From: Pleurocapsa sp. PCC 7319
Lineage (GTDB): Bacteria > Cyanobacteriota > Cyanobacteriia > Cyanobacteriales > Xenococcaceae
DNA: 64,000 nt
Direction: 5' to 3'
Assembly: GCF_000332195.1 (NCBI RefSeq)
Contig: NZ_KB235922.1
Location: 1,822,211 to 1,886,210 of the forward strand
Shown here: piece by piece, positions 31,088-36,347 of the stretch
How positions within the stretch are numbered: position 1 is the first letter of the stretch
How the letters are laid out: each line of letters opens with the position of its first letter
Notes under the pieces: model-generated
The model's database searches: none
What the model was told of the DNA's origin: nothing
Seen by the model: the letters and a program-made list of their open reading frames with translations, nothing else
Translations under genes and position numbers: made by a program

Positions 31088-31603
31088 TCAACTGCTTTCA
31101 GTGTCAGACTTTTGAGTTCTAACAACGTTGAATAGACGTTTTTCCTCTTTTTTGGCTGCTAACAATAAACTGTTCCAATCATCAGGAGGATTGCCATGAT
31201 CCAGCATTTTCTCAAATACCTTATAAGCATCAGTTTTACTTTCATAGGCTCGTTTCGATTTTTGATCGTTAACCCAGGCATAAACGATGATTTTAGAGCT
31301 TTGATGGTAACGAAAAAAGAGTCGATACTGCTGAAAAAACTTGGCTCTAAACCAGTGTTTGTAATTTTTCCCTAATGTCTTACCTTGACGATCTTCTGTG
31401 CGCGTTGGGTCAAGAGGAATAATTTCAAATGCTAATTTGGCGATCGCGGCAAGTCTTTTAGTCGCATTTTTACTATGATAAGTCTCAGGATTTTTTGGTC
31501 GCAGCTTTTCTACCGTAGCTAGAAGTTCTTCAAACTGACTTAAAAAGAGTGGATGGGCATATATTTTCCACCCATTAACTATTAATGGTTGATTTTTCGC
31601 CAA
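31088..31603 (-). CDS. yhaV: YhaV-type ribonuclease toxin
   Basis: 171 residues. VNGWKIYAHPLFLSQFE, KNATKRLAAIAKLAFEIIP, GKNYKHWFRAKFFQQYRLFFRY and IIVYAWVNDQKSKRAYESKTDAY are the family signature (RelE-like fold). YhaV cuts mRNA in translation and is held off by PrlF, which is encoded just upstream. The start codon is TTG at 31603, three bases after the prlF stop; no closer ATG fits. Confidence 0.93.
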   Translation of the reverse strand: MAKNQPLIVNGWKIYAHPLFLSQFEELLATVEKLRPKNPETYHSKNATKRLAAIAKLAFEIIPLDPTRTEDRQGKTLGKNYKHWFRAKFFQQYRLFFRYHQSSKIIVYAWVNDQKSKRAYESKTDAYKVFEKMLDHGNPPDDWNSLLLAAKKEEKRLFNVVRTQKSDTESS

Positions 31604-31605
31604 GT

Positions 31606-31944
31606 TTACTCATCCTCTTTGTTCAGAGGTTGATCTAGATCCACTTCTATCCCAGCTACTAATCTATCTACTTGCCCTTTTAAACTAGAATCTATTGCTT
31701 TGATGTTTTCTGGAGAGGTTTGAATATCGGTTGCTATGAAATCTAAAAAGTTGGCTAAAACAGGGTCTTCTTCCTCAGCATTATTTTTGGCTATGGTTAC
31801 AGTACCATCTTGATGTATGACATAACAAATTTTGTCTTTCTTGCTTAAGCCCAAAGCATTACGAACAGAAGCAGGGATTGTGGTCTGATAGCGGTCAGTA
31901 AGAGTAGATTCTGTTTCTATAACTGTGGGTTTAGTCATGACCAT
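31606..31944 (-). CDS. prlF: PrlF-type antitoxin (AbrB/MazE fold)
   Basis: 112 residues. The swapped-hairpin DNA-binding domain is ESTLTDRYQTTIPASVRNAL, the usual AbrB/MazE start. The acidic C-terminal half (DQPLNKEDE and upstream) would wrap YhaV. Directly upstream of yhaV in one transcript, where PrlF usually represses its own promoter. Confidence 0.92.
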   Translation of the reverse strand: MVMTKPTVIETESTLTDRYQTTIPASVRNALGLSKKDKICYVIHQDGTVTIAKNNAEEEDPVLANFLDFIATDIQTSPENIKAIDSSLKGQVDRLVAGIEVDLDQPLNKEDE

Positions 31945-32055
31945 TAAACATCAACAATTAGACTCTTTTTATAGTAATGCATTTGCATTACTATAACAAC
32001 TGTTGAAGATAAAACTAGCTAAATATTCTGCTGATAAATCTTTATTTAATATCTA

Positions 32056-32472
32056 ATGTTAAAAATTTCAGAGCAAGTCATTATTCCTAGCCGTGAAATT
32101 GATATAAGAGCTGTTCGTTCAACTGGAGCAGGTGGTCAAAACGTAAATAAAGTAGCTACGGCTATACATCTACGTTTTGATATTTTAGCGTCGTCACTTC
32201 CTGATTATTACAAAGAAAAGTTGTTGAAATTAAGTGAGTCGAGAATTTCAAAAGACGGAGTTATTGTCATCAAAGCACAGCAGTTTCGCACTCAGAATCA
32301 GAATAAAGAAGATGCCTTAAAACGACTGAAAAACGTCATCAAAAGTGTATCCATTCCGAAGAAAAAGCGACTCGCGACTAAACCTACTAAAGGAGCAAAA
32401 AGAAGGCGATTAGATAGCAAAGCTAAACGAAGTCAATTAAAGGCATCGAGAAAAAAGATTGACTATGATTAA
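32056..32472 (+). CDS. arfB: ArfB-type alternative ribosome rescue factor
   Basis: 138 residues. The release-factor-like GGQ loop (RSTGAGGQNVNK, Gln28) sits in the N-terminal domain, followed by a lysine-rich tail (KKKRLATKPTKGAKRRR) that in ArfB enters the mRNA channel of stalled ribosomes. It lacks codon-recognition domains. Divergent from the prlF-yhaV pair; possibly ancestral chromosome or a passenger. Confidence 0.9.
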   Translation: MLKISEQVIIPSREIDIRAVRSTGAGGQNVNKVATAIHLRFDILASSLPDYYKEKLLKLSESRISKDGVIVIKAQQFRTQNQNKEDALKRLKNVIKSVSIPKKKRLATKPTKGAKRRRLDSKAKRSQLKASRKKIDYD

Positions 32473-32669: not shown

Positions 32670-35516
32670 TTATGTCTTTTTACGCTTAGATGCGAGATGT
32701 TGTGGTACGAATCCCTCTGGATAAAGTTCGATAGTTGACAGCTTATGTTTCCGATGTTTTCTTCGGTTAAAAGTGTCTATATCTTGTTCCTTAGAAAGAA
32801 GAAATTTCAGGAAATCTATGCCTTTGTAATGACATGTCTGACAAATACTCAACAACACAAGATAATTTTCAAGTCCACTTTCTGTAATAATTCCATGATA
32901 AATCTCTCTATAATAGGCGAATTGCTTGATAGCATGTTCTGCATTGTTATTATTCCAAGGGATTCCGTCATACTGGATAAACGCGAACAATTTATCACGA
33001 TTTTTTATCAATCGTAACCGCAAGGCTTCCGCTGCATCGGATGAAATAAGTTGATTGTCTATGGAATTGAAAAATTCTTCAACTGCTAAAGTATGTCGCA
33101 TCAGATACTTTTTCCGAAGACCATGTTCATCAATTGATGTAACAATTTCTCTAAGCAACACACCAAAGGGTTGGGTAATCGACTTGAGTTCGTCGTCAAA
33201 CGGGTTGTTCAGCAACTCTTGATTTATATCTCGTATTAGATGAATAAGACATTTTTGTTGTGGACATTCTATACCGTCATATGCAGCATAGAAATCAGAA
33301 ACTAGAACACCTTTGAAATCAGCCAATAACTCATGTAAAAAACTTCCTTCCCTTGAGGGTCGATACAAATAAACAACTTGTTCAAGATTCGTAAAGACCC
33401 AAACATATCCTTTCTGATTTTGCAGCTCTATTTCTGTTTCATCTACATGTAGAAGTTTTCCAGCAACGATATCTGCTAATAGTCTTTGATAAGTAGTTTC
33501 ATAGTATCTTGCCATTAATGGCTTCAGCATGGAAATTTCATTAGAAGCAATACGTATTCCAAAAAATTCTTCAAACATCTTCGATAGTACTTGAAGATTT
33601 ATTTTATATTCCACATGCTGAAACATAACCCAGCTTTTGAGACCATGAAAATGTCTATCTAGTCTTTGATGCTCAATGGGAATAAATTCTTTATTACATT
33701 TAAGACACTTGTGTACCGAGGTTCTACACTCTATTACTCTACGCCTGATGCCAGTTGGTGTAAATATGATGTCGAAAGCTCTCTTGACTCTCGGTTCTGG
33801 AGTTCTAACTGGCTTCTTAATACCATTGACTACATCTTCGCTCTTGCAAATGGGACATTGTGAAGCAAGTATCGTGATTTTTTCAGATGCTGGCAGGCTG
33901 CGATTGGGAGAAGGAGCTTTAGTTGATTTAGCTTTTTTGATGGCTTTGCTACTATGTATATAAACTCGCTCTTGTTGATAATCAAAATATGCCCTCTTAT
34001 TGATAAATTCAAATTCGGGTTGGGCAAAATTTATTTTATTCCATTTGTGAAAATCAGATAGCTTTTCAATATCTTCTATAAAACCAACTGATTTATGGTT
34101 GACATTATCTACAACCGACTCTTTTTTCGGGGTGGTTATAGTTAAAATTTGCCGTATAGTTTCAGTAACTATTTTTAGTGCTATACAGTCCTCTAAATTG
34201 TAGGTCAATAGCTTATATTTCCAGCTATCATCGTAACTGGTTTCCCATTTTGCTCTCCAGACAATACTTTGAAGCCCTGAAGCATTTGATTCACTCCACG
34301 AAAACCCTAAGTATTTGCCTATATCCTTGAGACCATTCGAGTAGGTGGGGAAGTAGATATGTGCATAAATTAGGGAAAGAGTATTGACCATAGCATTCAA
34401 TATTCGCTCGATTAAAGCCTTATCAAGCGAGGCTTTGGTCATTTTCTTGATGAATGCTCGTTCATAACCACCATAGCAAAATATAATAAATTCTTCTCGT
34501 CGCGTAACCTCGTTGACAAACTGTTCAAATATCTGTGTCTCTTGCTCTTTACTCTCAGCCCAGAAAGAATAACGTTTTTCCGAACCTTTTTCTACAATAA
34601 GCAACCCAATAAGATAAACAAAATCGATGTCAGGATCGCTCTCTACATCAAGATAGATACATACTGGACTATCAGGTACTTGCACAGTTCCGAGGATGTA
34701 TATCTTTTCATCGCGTATCGCTAATGCTTGGAGGGCATGATAACGGCGTTGCGATTCTTTGGTCGCATTCTTTCTTTTTCTTCGAGGTCTAAATGTGTGA
34801 GCAAGTTGGGTAACTGTCAAAATCCCTTTGCGATTCAATGATTTGATTTCCTTCTCAGATATTCCTCGAATCAAACTGAGGTTGTCTTCTTGATGAGCTT
34901 GTTCGTAACAGTAGTTTTGAAACTCACATATTTGGCAGTGATTGTTGAGGACTAACCTGGGAACTTCCTCCCCGACACACATCTTTTTTAGGTCTAACTG
35001 GATTTGTTTAACTTTGCGTGAATCTGTATTAAGACGCACAGTAGTCTGCTTACATTCTTTGCCATGCCAAACACTCCCGACTACTGGAATTACCGTTTGA
35101 TATTTGACGAGAAATGTAGCCAATAATTCTAAAAAAAGCCTTTGCTCTTTACGAATTCGGCTTCCTTCATAAAATAACATCGGTGCATAGAAAGAGTGAT
35201 CCTGTCGCTTTGTTGCTACTTTTTTAATTCCATCTAATACCAAAGAAAAATGATTGTCTTCAACAGATAAGTTAAGAATAAAAAGACTACCTTTTTCTAA
35301 TATCGAAGTAATAAGAGAAACATCACTTATTACTTGCTCATCAGTAACTTTTGCCTGGATTTTACTAAGTGCATTGCGTTTTACGTTACTTCTTAATTTG
35401 AGCTGTAAGTCCTCATAATCCGATTTAATGCCTGACTGGCCTATCAGTTTGAGATAGCCCTTGTATCTACAATGAATATAACTTTCAAGCACATCGTTGG
35501 TAACTATTGCTTTCAT
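32670..35516 (-). CDS. TM0106-type RecB-like nuclease / DEDD exonuclease fused to IS66-type transposase
   Basis: 948 residues from ATG 35516 (MKAIVTNDVLESYIHCRYKG). Residues 1-240 are RecB/Cas4-like as in the TM0106 family, with the Cys cluster CQICEFQNYC near 199. Residues ~285-470 look like an RNase H_2/DEDD exonuclease: YLDVESDPDIDF near 294, CYGGYERAF, NGLKDIGKYLGFSW and YNLEDC. From about 530 the protein is IS66-like: a zinc finger CPICKSEDV...CLKCNKEF near 555, catalytic HVDETE near 692, SDFYAAYDG near 743 and NNNAEHAIKQF near 857. No IS66 accessory genes or ends were seen. I recall fusions of this type but not a described function. Proposed to process or rejoin DNA ends; activity inferred only. 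Confidence 0.85.
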   Translation of the reverse strand: MKAIVTNDVLESYIHCRYKGYLKLIGQSGIKSDYEDLQLKLRSNVKRNALSKIQAKVTDEQVISDVSLITSILEKGSLFILNLSVEDNHFSLVLDGIKKVATKRQDHSFYAPMLFYEGSRIRKEQRLFLELLATFLVKYQTVIPVVGSVWHGKECKQTTVRLNTDSRKVKQIQLDLKKMCVGEEVPRLVLNNHCQICEFQNYCYEQAHQEDNLSLIRGISEKEIKSLNRKGILTVTQLAHTFRPRRKRKNATKESQRRYHALQALAIRDEKIYILGTVQVPDSPVCIYLDVESDPDIDFVYLIGLLIVEKGSEKRYSFWAESKEQETQIFEQFVNEVTRREEFIIFCYGGYERAFIKKMTKASLDKALIERILNAMVNTLSLIYAHIYFPTYSNGLKDIGKYLGFSWSESNASGLQSIVWRAKWETSYDDSWKYKLLTYNLEDCIALKIVTETIRQILTITTPKKESVVDNVNHKSVGFIEDIEKLSDFHKWNKINFAQPEFEFINKRAYFDYQQERVYIHSSKAIKKAKSTKAPSPNRSLPASEKITILASQCPICKSEDVVNGIKKPVRTPEPRVKRAFDIIFTPTGIRRRVIECRTSVHKCLKCNKEFIPIEHQRLDRHFHGLKSWVMFQHVEYKINLQVLSKMFEEFFGIRIASNEISMLKPLMARYYETTYQRLLADIVAGKLLHVDETEIELQNQKGYVWVFTNLEQVVYLYRPSREGSFLHELLADFKGVLVSDFYAAYDGIECPQQKCLIHLIRDINQELLNNPFDDELKSITQPFGVLLREIVTSIDEHGLRKKYLMRHTLAVEEFFNSIDNQLISSDAAEALRLRLIKNRDKLFAFIQYDGIPWNNNNAEHAIKQFAYYREIYHGIITESGLENYLVLLSICQTCHYKGIDFLKFLLSKEQDIDTFNRRKHRKHKLSTIELYPEGFVPQHLASKRKKT

Positions 35517-35645: not shown

Positions 35646-35993
35646 TTAACTGGCAATCAGATTAGTTTCTTTTCTAATAGATTGTGTAATTGCTTCTACT
35701 AATAACAATCGTTCATTAATAGATAATTGAAGAATTGATTCAGTTAAAGATTCTAAAGTTTTTGGGGATTCTGTCTTAGATGAAACACTTAGACTTATTT
35801 GTTCTCCTCTATTTAGATTCTGCTCTATTTCTGACTTCAGAGATTCTAAAAACATACAGTCATTACCTAAATCAGAAGCTTCATCTTCATATTCTTCTTG
35901 GTCTTCAATTTGAGCCAGCCGACCATTATATTGACTTAGTAGATGATTAATTGCCTCTAACATAAATTTAAGATCTTTAAACGATAAATTCAT
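35646..35993 (-). CDS. Small protein, candidate antitoxin to the Tse2-like gene
   Basis: 115 residues from ATG 35993; GTG at 35999 is the alternative. It begins MNLSFKDLKFMLEAINHLLS and is helical and acidic; a Ser/Thr-rich middle (SLSVSSKTESPKT) precedes a second helical region. It starts within 10 bases of the upstream gene's stop, so it is co-translated. No homologue recognised. Role as antitoxin follows only from position and size. Confidence 0.55.
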   Translation of the reverse strand: MNLSFKDLKFMLEAINHLLSQYNGRLAQIEDQEEYEDEASDLGNDCMFLESLKSEIEQNLNRGEQISLSVSSKTESPKTLESLTESILQLSINERLLLVEAITQSIRKETNLIAS

Positions 35994-35999
35994 AAACAC

Positions 36000-36347
36000 C
36001 TAACTCACTTTATAAAAAGACTGACCACTTATTAGCAAAGCTTTTTTGTATTTCTCCAATGGCATTGTTCGACTAGGTTTCCACAGCCAATGATTTCCCC
36101 TGTCGTTAATTAATTCTAAATCTTGTGGAATGTCTATGCCAGCATCTATTTTCCACCAATTTTTCCCTTTTCCTTGAACTGAAAAAGTTGAGATGCCTCC
36201 TGGTTCAAATCCTTCTGGTACTGTTTCTTGGACCCAAGTTTTCCCTTCCCTTTCGTATGTGGCAATATCTTTATTGAGACGAACATTGTCCATTCGAGGA
36301 GAATTAGCATTACCTCTTCGATATAAGTCAACTGGTGTTTTTGCCAT
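36000..36347 (-). CDS. Possible Tse2-family ADP-ribosyltransferase toxin
   Basis: 115 residues. LYRRGNANSPRMDNVR, GGISTFSVQGKG, IDIPQDLELIND and HWLWKPSRTMPLEKY line up in order with the Tse2-type ADP-ribosyltransferase toxin domain as I recall it (LYR, GGxSTF, DIPPDL, HYTxxPxxxM). Tse2 in Pseudomonas is a type VI effector; chromosomal relatives form toxin-antitoxin pairs. NAD-binding residues cannot be confirmed by eye. Paired with the 115-residue gene directly downstream. Confidence 0.5.
   Translation of the reverse strand: MAKTPVDLYRRGNANSPRMDNVRLNKDIATYEREGKTWVQETVPEGFEPGGISTFSVQGKGKNWWKIDAGIDIPQDLELINDRGNHWLWKPSRTMPLEKYKKALLISGQSFYKVS

What the first reader, a model, noticed from the sequence alone, without database searches (positions are those of the whole stretch)
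32670..35516. RecB/DEDD nuclease fused to an IS66-type DDE transposase
One uninterrupted frame of 948 residues joins a TM0106-type nuclease with a cysteine cluster, a DEDD exonuclease-like domain (YLDVESDPD, YNLEDC) and an IS66-like DDE domain with its own zinc finger and D, D, E motifs (HVDETE, SDFYAAYD, NNNAEHA). Two nuclease chemistries with a strand-transfer domain in one chain suggest trimming of DNA ends followed by joining, as Cas4 does for Cas1. It lacks IS66 accessory genes and terminal repeats, so it is not simply an insertion. I recall similar fusions in databases but no described role.
Basis: partly seen in the sequence, partly recalled or inferred. Interest (0 to 1): 0.8.

Follow-up and report, generated by a model that had tools for sequence, protein, structure and literature searches.

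The report
Nuclease–transposase fusion without transposon ends
A large protein that joins a DNA-trimming enzyme to a DNA-joining (transposase) enzyme belongs to a conserved family found patchily across many bacterial phyla, and because no transposon ends were found around its genes it is probably not an ordinary jumping gene but an accessory DNA-processing enzyme whose job is still unknown.

Summary
It is not a chance fusion. Of 94 loci examined, 83 (window included) keep the layout in one frame; the DEDD and DDE residues are intact in 83 of 83. The Cas4-like head has lost its nuclease motif (present in 0 of 83), so one nuclease chemistry remains. The loci do not behave like an insertion sequence: a scan that finds inverted ends in 4 of 4 IS66 copies of the host finds no shared ends here, and 17 of 17 within-genome pairs are only 31-71% identical. 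The gene is rare (full-length in 7 of 291 genomes of the order), spread across phyla, and in a number of loci lies beside unrelated toxin-antitoxin or restriction genes. Here a Tse2-like toxin pair adjoins it, with a DISARM set beyond. Best reading: an accessory one-chain enzyme that trims 3' DNA ends, then cuts or joins them, travelling with addiction/defence modules. Substrate and role are not shown; a mobile gene with unrecognised ends is a serious rival. My paper searches listed no description of the fusion.

The parts
32670..35516 (-). Fusion gene, 948 aa: Cas4-like Fe-S head, DEDDy exonuclease, zinc-finger-like part, IS66-type DDE domain
34884..35516 (-). Cas4-like head, about residues 1-211, with C16/C194/C197/C203 (likely 4Fe-4S, inferred) and no [D/E]-x-K nuclease motif
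   Evidence: Pfam Cas_Cas4 on 118-204, Foldseek Cas4 1.8e-5, residue counts
34158..34658 (-). DEDDy-type 3'-5' exonuclease domain, residues 287-453 (D290, E292, E352, Y439, D443)
   Evidence: RNase_H_2 2.5e-24; residue counts
33696..33857 (-). Zinc-finger-like part of the IS66-type half, residues 554-607 (C554, C557, C604, C607)
   Evidence: sequence; counts
32868..33644 (-). IS66-type DDE domain, residues 625-883 (D692, D741, E860)
   Evidence: DDE_Tnp_IS66 3.5e-31; best Foldseek match of the whole model ISCth4 transposase 1.3e-7
35646..35999 (-). 117-aa ORF directly upstream, unknown; partner of the Tse2-like ORF by position (inferred)
   Evidence: no Pfam match; matched together with its neighbour in other genomes
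36000..36347 (-). Tse2-type ADP-ribosyltransferase toxin homologue, upstream neighbour
   Evidence: PF18648 7.6e-11

Best explanation
The gene encodes a one-chain DNA-end processing enzyme. A Cas4-like Fe-S head that has lost its own nuclease motif binds DNA ends, the DEDDy domain trims the 3' strand, and the IS66-type DDE domain makes the second cut or joins the trimmed end to other DNA. It is a horizontally exchanged accessory gene that in many loci lies beside toxin-antitoxin or restriction modules. It does not look like the transposase of a conventional insertion sequence carrying its own gene; it most likely acts in trans on foreign or mobile DNA, in a defence or DNA-maintenance role. Shown: domain layout, conservation of both active sites, loss of the Cas4-type motif, mixed-phylum tree, no detectable ends. 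Inferred: order of trimming and joining, action in trans, defence-like role.
For: DEDD residues (position 352 Glu in 75, Asp in 8) and the DDE triad intact in 83 of 83 rows; [D/E]-x-K in 0 of 83. DDE halves of 32 fusions chosen for diversity form one side of a branch against 6 IS66 proteins, consistent with one fusion event (quick tree, one long branch and odd composition flagged; the nuclease half was not treed). Phylum labels change 34 times on the full-length tree (least possible 10; shuffles mean 45.5). A TM0106 match is in 272 of 291 genomes of the order, the full-length fusion in 7 of 291. No ends: scan positive in 4 of 4 IS66 copies of the host, no common repeat in 66 fusion loci. Neighbours: Tse2-like; PIN, PemK, Phd/YefM, Gp49, HTH_37, MqsA, UPF0175, DUF6088/AbiEii; a methylase shares a moved block in L018/L019; in Bacteroidota the fusion moves with an AbiE pair in a unit with attC-like edges. 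DISARM genes lie near in the window.
Against: No activity is measured. PADLOC gives the fusion only weak Cas4 matches. Its hits among near ORFs are led by one AbiE lineage and otherwise resemble those far away (first 25 of 42 and 56 families seen). The toxin-antitoxin excess near versus far is modest and its cases are not independent. Several neighbours are housekeeping-type genes, e.g. Peptidase_M50 and YchF. A DDE triad kept in 83 of 83 is also what an active transposase would show, and the 830-aa filter favours intact genes.
Confidence: 0.42

Rival explanations
1. It is the recombinase of a minimal mobile gene whose ends are short, variable or unconventional: the element is little more than the gene and picks up neighbouring addiction modules as cargo. 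The exonuclease would take the place of TnsA-like second-strand processing.
For: Intact DDE triad, mixed-phylum tree, two plasmid records covering at least 80% of the protein, DNA similarity of many related pairs stopping at or near the gene edges, several broken copies, blocks shared by distant genomes: L071/L072 95% over 4298 bp, L018/L019 93% over 6005 bp.
Against: No shared ends or telling motif; 17 of 17 within-genome pairs 31-71% identical (most are bins, where identical repeats can collapse), against 99.7-99.9% for five comparisons of the host's IS66 copies; none confirmed in viral contigs, with two short peptide patterns only.
Confidence: 0.33
2. It is a self-contained addiction or anti-plasmid passenger module in which the DDE domain is a structure-specific endonuclease and never joins DNA.
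For: attC-like edged unit in Bacteroidota; in genome G279 DNA matching the two flanking genes of one fusion (88% over 371 bp, 87% over 343 bp) surrounds an unrelated 336-aa ORF elsewhere (no intact copy of either flanking gene was listed there).
Against: No common antidote gene: of 38 neighbour clusters only 3 occur in more than 3 of 94 loci (6, 5 and 5).
Confidence: 0.12
3. It is an ordinary IS66-type insertion sequence whose terminal repeats are too degraded to see.
For: IS66-type domain; single-ORF IS66 elements exist in the same genome.
Against: The same scan finds repeats in 4 of 4 IS66 copies but nothing common here; intact active sites in the family argue against decay; one copy in the host genome, no near-identical copies elsewhere.
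Confidence: 0.08

Closest known systems
TM0106 / COG2251 / TIGR03491 RecB-like nucleases
   Same: Residues 6-452 match over the curated cut-off; the four Cys and the D-x-E, E, Y-x3-D residues are also in 14 of 14 standalone rows compared
   Different: The 14 standalone forms are 478-520 aa; PMC3985635 (passages read) names DUF83 and AAA domains with COG2251, and those passages name no DDE transposase
IS66 family, single-ORF type as in the host genome
   Same: DDE domain; zinc-finger-like cysteines in the N-terminal part (recalled as an IS66 trait)
   Different: No terminal repeats found, no near-identical copies, an extra nuclease half of about 530 residues
Cas4 of type I-C CRISPR adaptation, and Dna2
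   Same: Foldseek matches: Cas4 1.8e-5, Dna2 9.9e-4; profile match to Cas4 1.4e-5
   Different: Catalytic [D/E]-x-K absent in 83 of 83; no CRISPR-like array found in 94 loci
TnsA-TnsB fusions of Tn7-like transposons (recalled; listing and start of abstract of PMC8188705 seen)
   Same: A nuclease and a DDE transposase in one chain
   Different: The intact nuclease site here is DEDDy, not TnsA-type (recalled); Tn7-like ends and partner genes were not searched for specifically

Membership tests
IS66 insertion sequence | TnpC-type DDE transposase | tested here: met
   Pfam PF03050 109 bits against 23.1; NCBIfam 177 against 180, just under; DDE in 83 of 83
IS66 insertion sequence | Terminal inverted repeats | tested here: not met
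   window; family; 4 of 4 IS66 copies positive (two kinds; three near-identical)
IS66 insertion sequence | Accessory tnpA/tnpB (absent in single-ORF types) | tested here: not met
   none among 8 window neighbours; for the family inconclusive: only the first 25 of 130 families of 150 near ORFs were shown
IS66 insertion sequence | Near-identical copies in a genome | tested here: not met
   one copy in the host genome; 17 of 17 within-genome pairs elsewhere 31-71%
TM0106 (TIGR03491) | Match over curated cut-off | tested here: met
   236 bits against 97.45
TM0106 (TIGR03491) | Cysteine cluster and DEDD residues as in standalone members | tested here: met
Cas4 | PD-(D/E)XK nuclease motif | tested here: not met
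   0 of 83 with [D/E]-x-K at that place; alignment with 8d3l
Cas4 | Association with CRISPR arrays | tested here: not met
   none in 94 loci with exact 18-mers, spacing 40-110; cas genes were not searched for
Integron gene cassette (five Bacteroidota loci only) | attC-type hairpin at the junction, and an integron integrase | tested here: inconclusive
   two junctions folded, z -5.4 and -2.8; integrase over cut-off in 0 of 5 genomes, sub-cut-off matches in 5 of 5 and in 14 of 14 controls
Anti-phage defence system | Protection against phage | not testable with these tools
   -

The most novel reading that the evidence does not exclude
A single polypeptide that does what CRISPR adaptation needs several proteins for: a Fe-S Cas4-like head recognises a DNA end, a DEDD exonuclease trims it, and a DDE integrase inserts the trimmed piece at a chosen site, giving a DNA-capture or immunity system without CRISPR.
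Probability: 0.1. Interest if true: 0.93.

Novelty: new variant of a known kind. Interest (0 to 1): 0.62.

Why it matters
It is a cross-phylum enzyme family with two intact nucleic-acid active sites and no role that my paper searches turned up. If it acts in trans, it is a transposase turned into an accessory DNA-processing or defence tool; if it is mobile, it is a transposon kind without recognisable ends. Either outcome can be tested directly with purified protein and catalytic mutants.

Tried and rejected
Chance fusion or frame artefact: rejected, 83 of 94 loci carry it in one frame. Ordinary IS: rejected on ends and copy pattern. The strong inverted repeats at L056 and L092 lie beside ORFs that I read by eye as REP-associated transposases; I take them as REP sequences, untested. 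Sharp right end of L099: 58 bp of its flank recur at 98% at the end of another contig, so I take it as an unrelated repeat. Empty sites: the two window flanks, searched apart in 27 genomes of the family, matched as separate modules; joined flanks of L098 and L108 in 291 genomes gave no match across a junction among the rows listed, with at most two candidates scored per genome. The genus search around G279 held that genome alone. Rfam at gathering score: none in the window or in nine loci. Viral contigs: 19 pattern stretches, none confirmed; the phage record collection was not searched. Literature: eight searches listed no paper that I recognised as describing the fusion; only PMC3985635 was opened, passages only. 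Rows dropped: 11 of 94 loci had under 830 aa in one frame and were left out of the alignment of 83 (L043, L052, L057, L067, L079, L089, L093, L095, L103, L104, L106; L104 is a standalone TM0106); L031 was left out before the 94, 100% identical to L030 over its whole 12,649 bp; L072 and L019 were left out of the neighbour sets as near-duplicates; 12 of 83 near-duplicates and one short flank were left out of the upstream k-mer count, 16 in all of the downstream one.

Full report
WHAT IS THERE. The frame lies on the minus strand, 32670-35516, taken from the ATG at 35516, 948 residues. NCBIfam gives TIGR03491 (TM0106) on 6-452 and IS66 transposase on 530-907, the latter 3 bits under its cut-off; Pfam gives Cas4, RNase_H_2 and DDE_Tnp_IS66, each over cut-off. 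The AlphaFold model, from an alignment of 51 members, has mean pLDDT 86.4 and pTM 0.54: the domains are well predicted, their arrangement is not. Foldseek against the PDB, nine matches at E <= 0.001, finds ISCth4 transposase (1.3e-7), type I-C Cas4 (1.8e-5) and Dna2 (9.9e-4).

NOT A CHANCE FUSION. A scan of the species-genome collection with six short peptides of this protein confirmed 153 of 160 stretches as relatives; the best 80 were kept. With 13 matches from 291 genomes of the order (the window among them) and two plasmid loci, less one duplicate, 94 loci counting the window were examined. In 83 of them one frame of at least 830 aa covers the family. Counts over these 83 rows: D290, E292, Y439, D443, C194, C197, C203, C554, C604, C607, D692, D741 and E860 in 83; position 352 Glu in 75 and Asp in 8; C16 in 79 with a gap in 4; C557 in 81. 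The Cas4-type [D/E]-x-K is in 0 of 83 and an Asp at the preceding catalytic place in 30; against a solved Cas4 the profile has Pirf where Cas4 has PVEYK. The 14 standalone TM0106 proteins aligned also show no clear [D/E]-x-K there, so the loss may predate the fusion. The 830-aa filter favours intact genes; of the 11 loci that fell out, some are split between two frames, some are cut by a contig end and one is a standalone TM0106.

HISTORY. DDE halves of 32 diverse fusions form one group against six IS66 proteins (support 95, quick tree; one IS66 row flagged as a long branch, five for composition; two are near-identical). On the full-length tree 70 of 83 rows have a phylum; the labels need 34 changes where 10 is the least possible and shuffles average 45.5. 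That is no proof of transfer, since bins may hold foreign contigs and paralogues split groups. The nearest relatives of the window protein are a protein of an Acaryochloris plasmid (66%) and one from a deltaproteobacterial bin (59%). A TM0106 match is in 272 of 291 genomes of the order; the best matches, those listed, have frames of 482-601 aa. The fusion search hit 9 of those 291: full-length in 7 (window included), partial in one, and the standalone L104 in one. In a sample of the phylum it hit 2 of 386, the window's genome being one.

NOT AN ORDINARY INSERTION SEQUENCE. The host genome has one copy. In 11 other genomes or bins with more than one copy, 17 of 17 pairs, broken copies included, are 31-71% identical in protein. 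Five comparisons of the host's own IS66 copies give 99.7-99.9% over 1,522-1,536 bp. An inverted-repeat scan scores 17.5-21.5 on four of four IS66 copies, of two kinds; for 66 fusion loci the median is 12 and the 95th percentile 15.75, against 11 and 13.0 for 200 mismatched pairs (maximum 15.0); four loci exceed 15.0, each with a different repeat. The null came from fusion flanks, not from IS66 loci. A narrower scan of 87 loci gave medians of 10 against 9.5, with three loci above the null maximum. Among 70 upstream and 67 downstream flanks the commonest words are A/T-rich or CCG-type and exceed shuffles by one copy at most. Alignments of many related pairs lose similarity at or near the gene edges unless a companion gene is shared.

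COMPANY IT KEEPS. In the window a 117-aa ORF and a Tse2-type toxin homologue lie directly upstream, then a resolvase, then DISARM genes (drmC, drmB, drmA, drmMI, drmD by PADLOC); on the other side are an RF-1-like gene and PrlF/YhaV. In some searches I scanned 20 neighbour ORFs from 17 loci, picked because they looked promising: 13 loci gave a toxin-antitoxin or methylase family (PIN, PemK, Phd/YefM, Gp49, HTH_37, MqsA, UPF0175, DUF6088/AbiEii, N6_N4_Mtase), L051 only a generic HTH, and L050, L020 and L110 nothing. The less biased comparison took the 150 nearest of 267 ORFs within 1 kb and 150 random of 253 at 3.5-8 kb. Near: DUF6088 4, Gp49 3, PIN 3, HTH_37 2, MqsA 1, besides HTH_3 4 and HTH_31 4, which are ambiguous. 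Far: ParE 2. Only the first 25 of 130 and 160 families are shown, and lineages repeat, so this is suggestive only. With PADLOC the near set is led by one AbiE lineage and the rest looks like background.

MOVED BLOCKS. L071/L072 share 4,298 bp at 95% (fusion plus AbiE pair); L018/L019 share 6,005 bp at 93% (a 262-aa ORF without Pfam match, a methylase and the fusion). In five Bacteroidota loci with the AbiE pair the left side begins with a GTTATGCC- or GTTAC-type word; its complement at the right side is exact in L063 and L072, off by one base in L076, imperfect in L071, and the right side of L062 is missing. The joined junctions of L063 and L072 fold better than 200 of 200 shuffles. This resembles integron cassettes, but an integron integrase passed its cut-off in 0 of 5 genomes. 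In the single-contig genome G279, DNA matching the genes on both sides of one fusion surrounds an unrelated 336-aa ORF at another place, though neither flanking gene was listed as an intact ORF there. In these cases the gene looks like cargo or an exchangeable module (inference).

HOW IT LIKELY WORKS. From general knowledge of the families: DEDDy domains are 3'-5' exonucleases, and IS66-type domains perform DDE cleavage and strand transfer. The most economical model is an end-binding Fe-S head, 3' trimming, then DDE cutting or joining, in trans. Substrate, order and purpose are inference. I give this reading 0.42, a mobile gene with unrecognised ends 0.33, a passenger addiction or anti-plasmid module without joining 0.12, and a decayed ordinary IS66 0.08.

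NOVELTY. The parts are known; the combination stands in public records as TM0106 nuclease or putative IS66 transposase. Eight paper searches listed nothing that I recognised as describing it. PMC3985635, of which only passages were read, reports DUF83 and AAA domains with COG2251 and places IS66 in another clade of the RNase H-like superfamily. Most papers of subscription journals are not in that library.

Noticed in passing
window 37414-58500: A DISARM set (drmC, drmB, drmA, drmMI, drmD on the minus strand, PADLOC) with a UvrD/GajB-like helicase and several small ORFs between drmA and drmMI.
   Followed up: partly
window 35646-36347: A 117-aa ORF plus a Tse2-type toxin homologue; the whole pair is matched in G280 and G120 and part of it in G272 and G046, genomes without a fusion match; the match begins at the stop codon of the 117-aa ORF.
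   Followed up: partly
window 31088-32472: PrlF/YhaV toxin-antitoxin pair (31088-31944, minus) and an RF-1-like (ArfB-type by reading) gene (32056-32472, plus).
   Followed up: no
L063 244-4827; L072 1-4792; also L062, L071, L076: Fusion plus AbiE pair with attC-like edges in Bacteroidota; L071 and L076 share similar DNA just beyond the right edge although they come from two genera.
   Followed up: partly
L172 3367-5548 and L161 5660-9181: DNA of the same two flanking genes surrounds a 336-aa ORF at one place and the fusion at another in one single-contig genome.
   Followed up: partly
L056 and L092: Strong inverted repeats around the fusion, beside ORFs that read like REP-associated transposases.
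   Followed up: no
L039 7707-13401; L043 3209-11104: Two fusion genes close together on one contig, 35% and about 31% identical; the first copy in L043 is split between two frames.
   Followed up: partly
L001-L006: The host genome carries single-ORF IS66 elements of about 1.53 kb, nearly identical, with 25-base inverted ends.
   Followed up: yes
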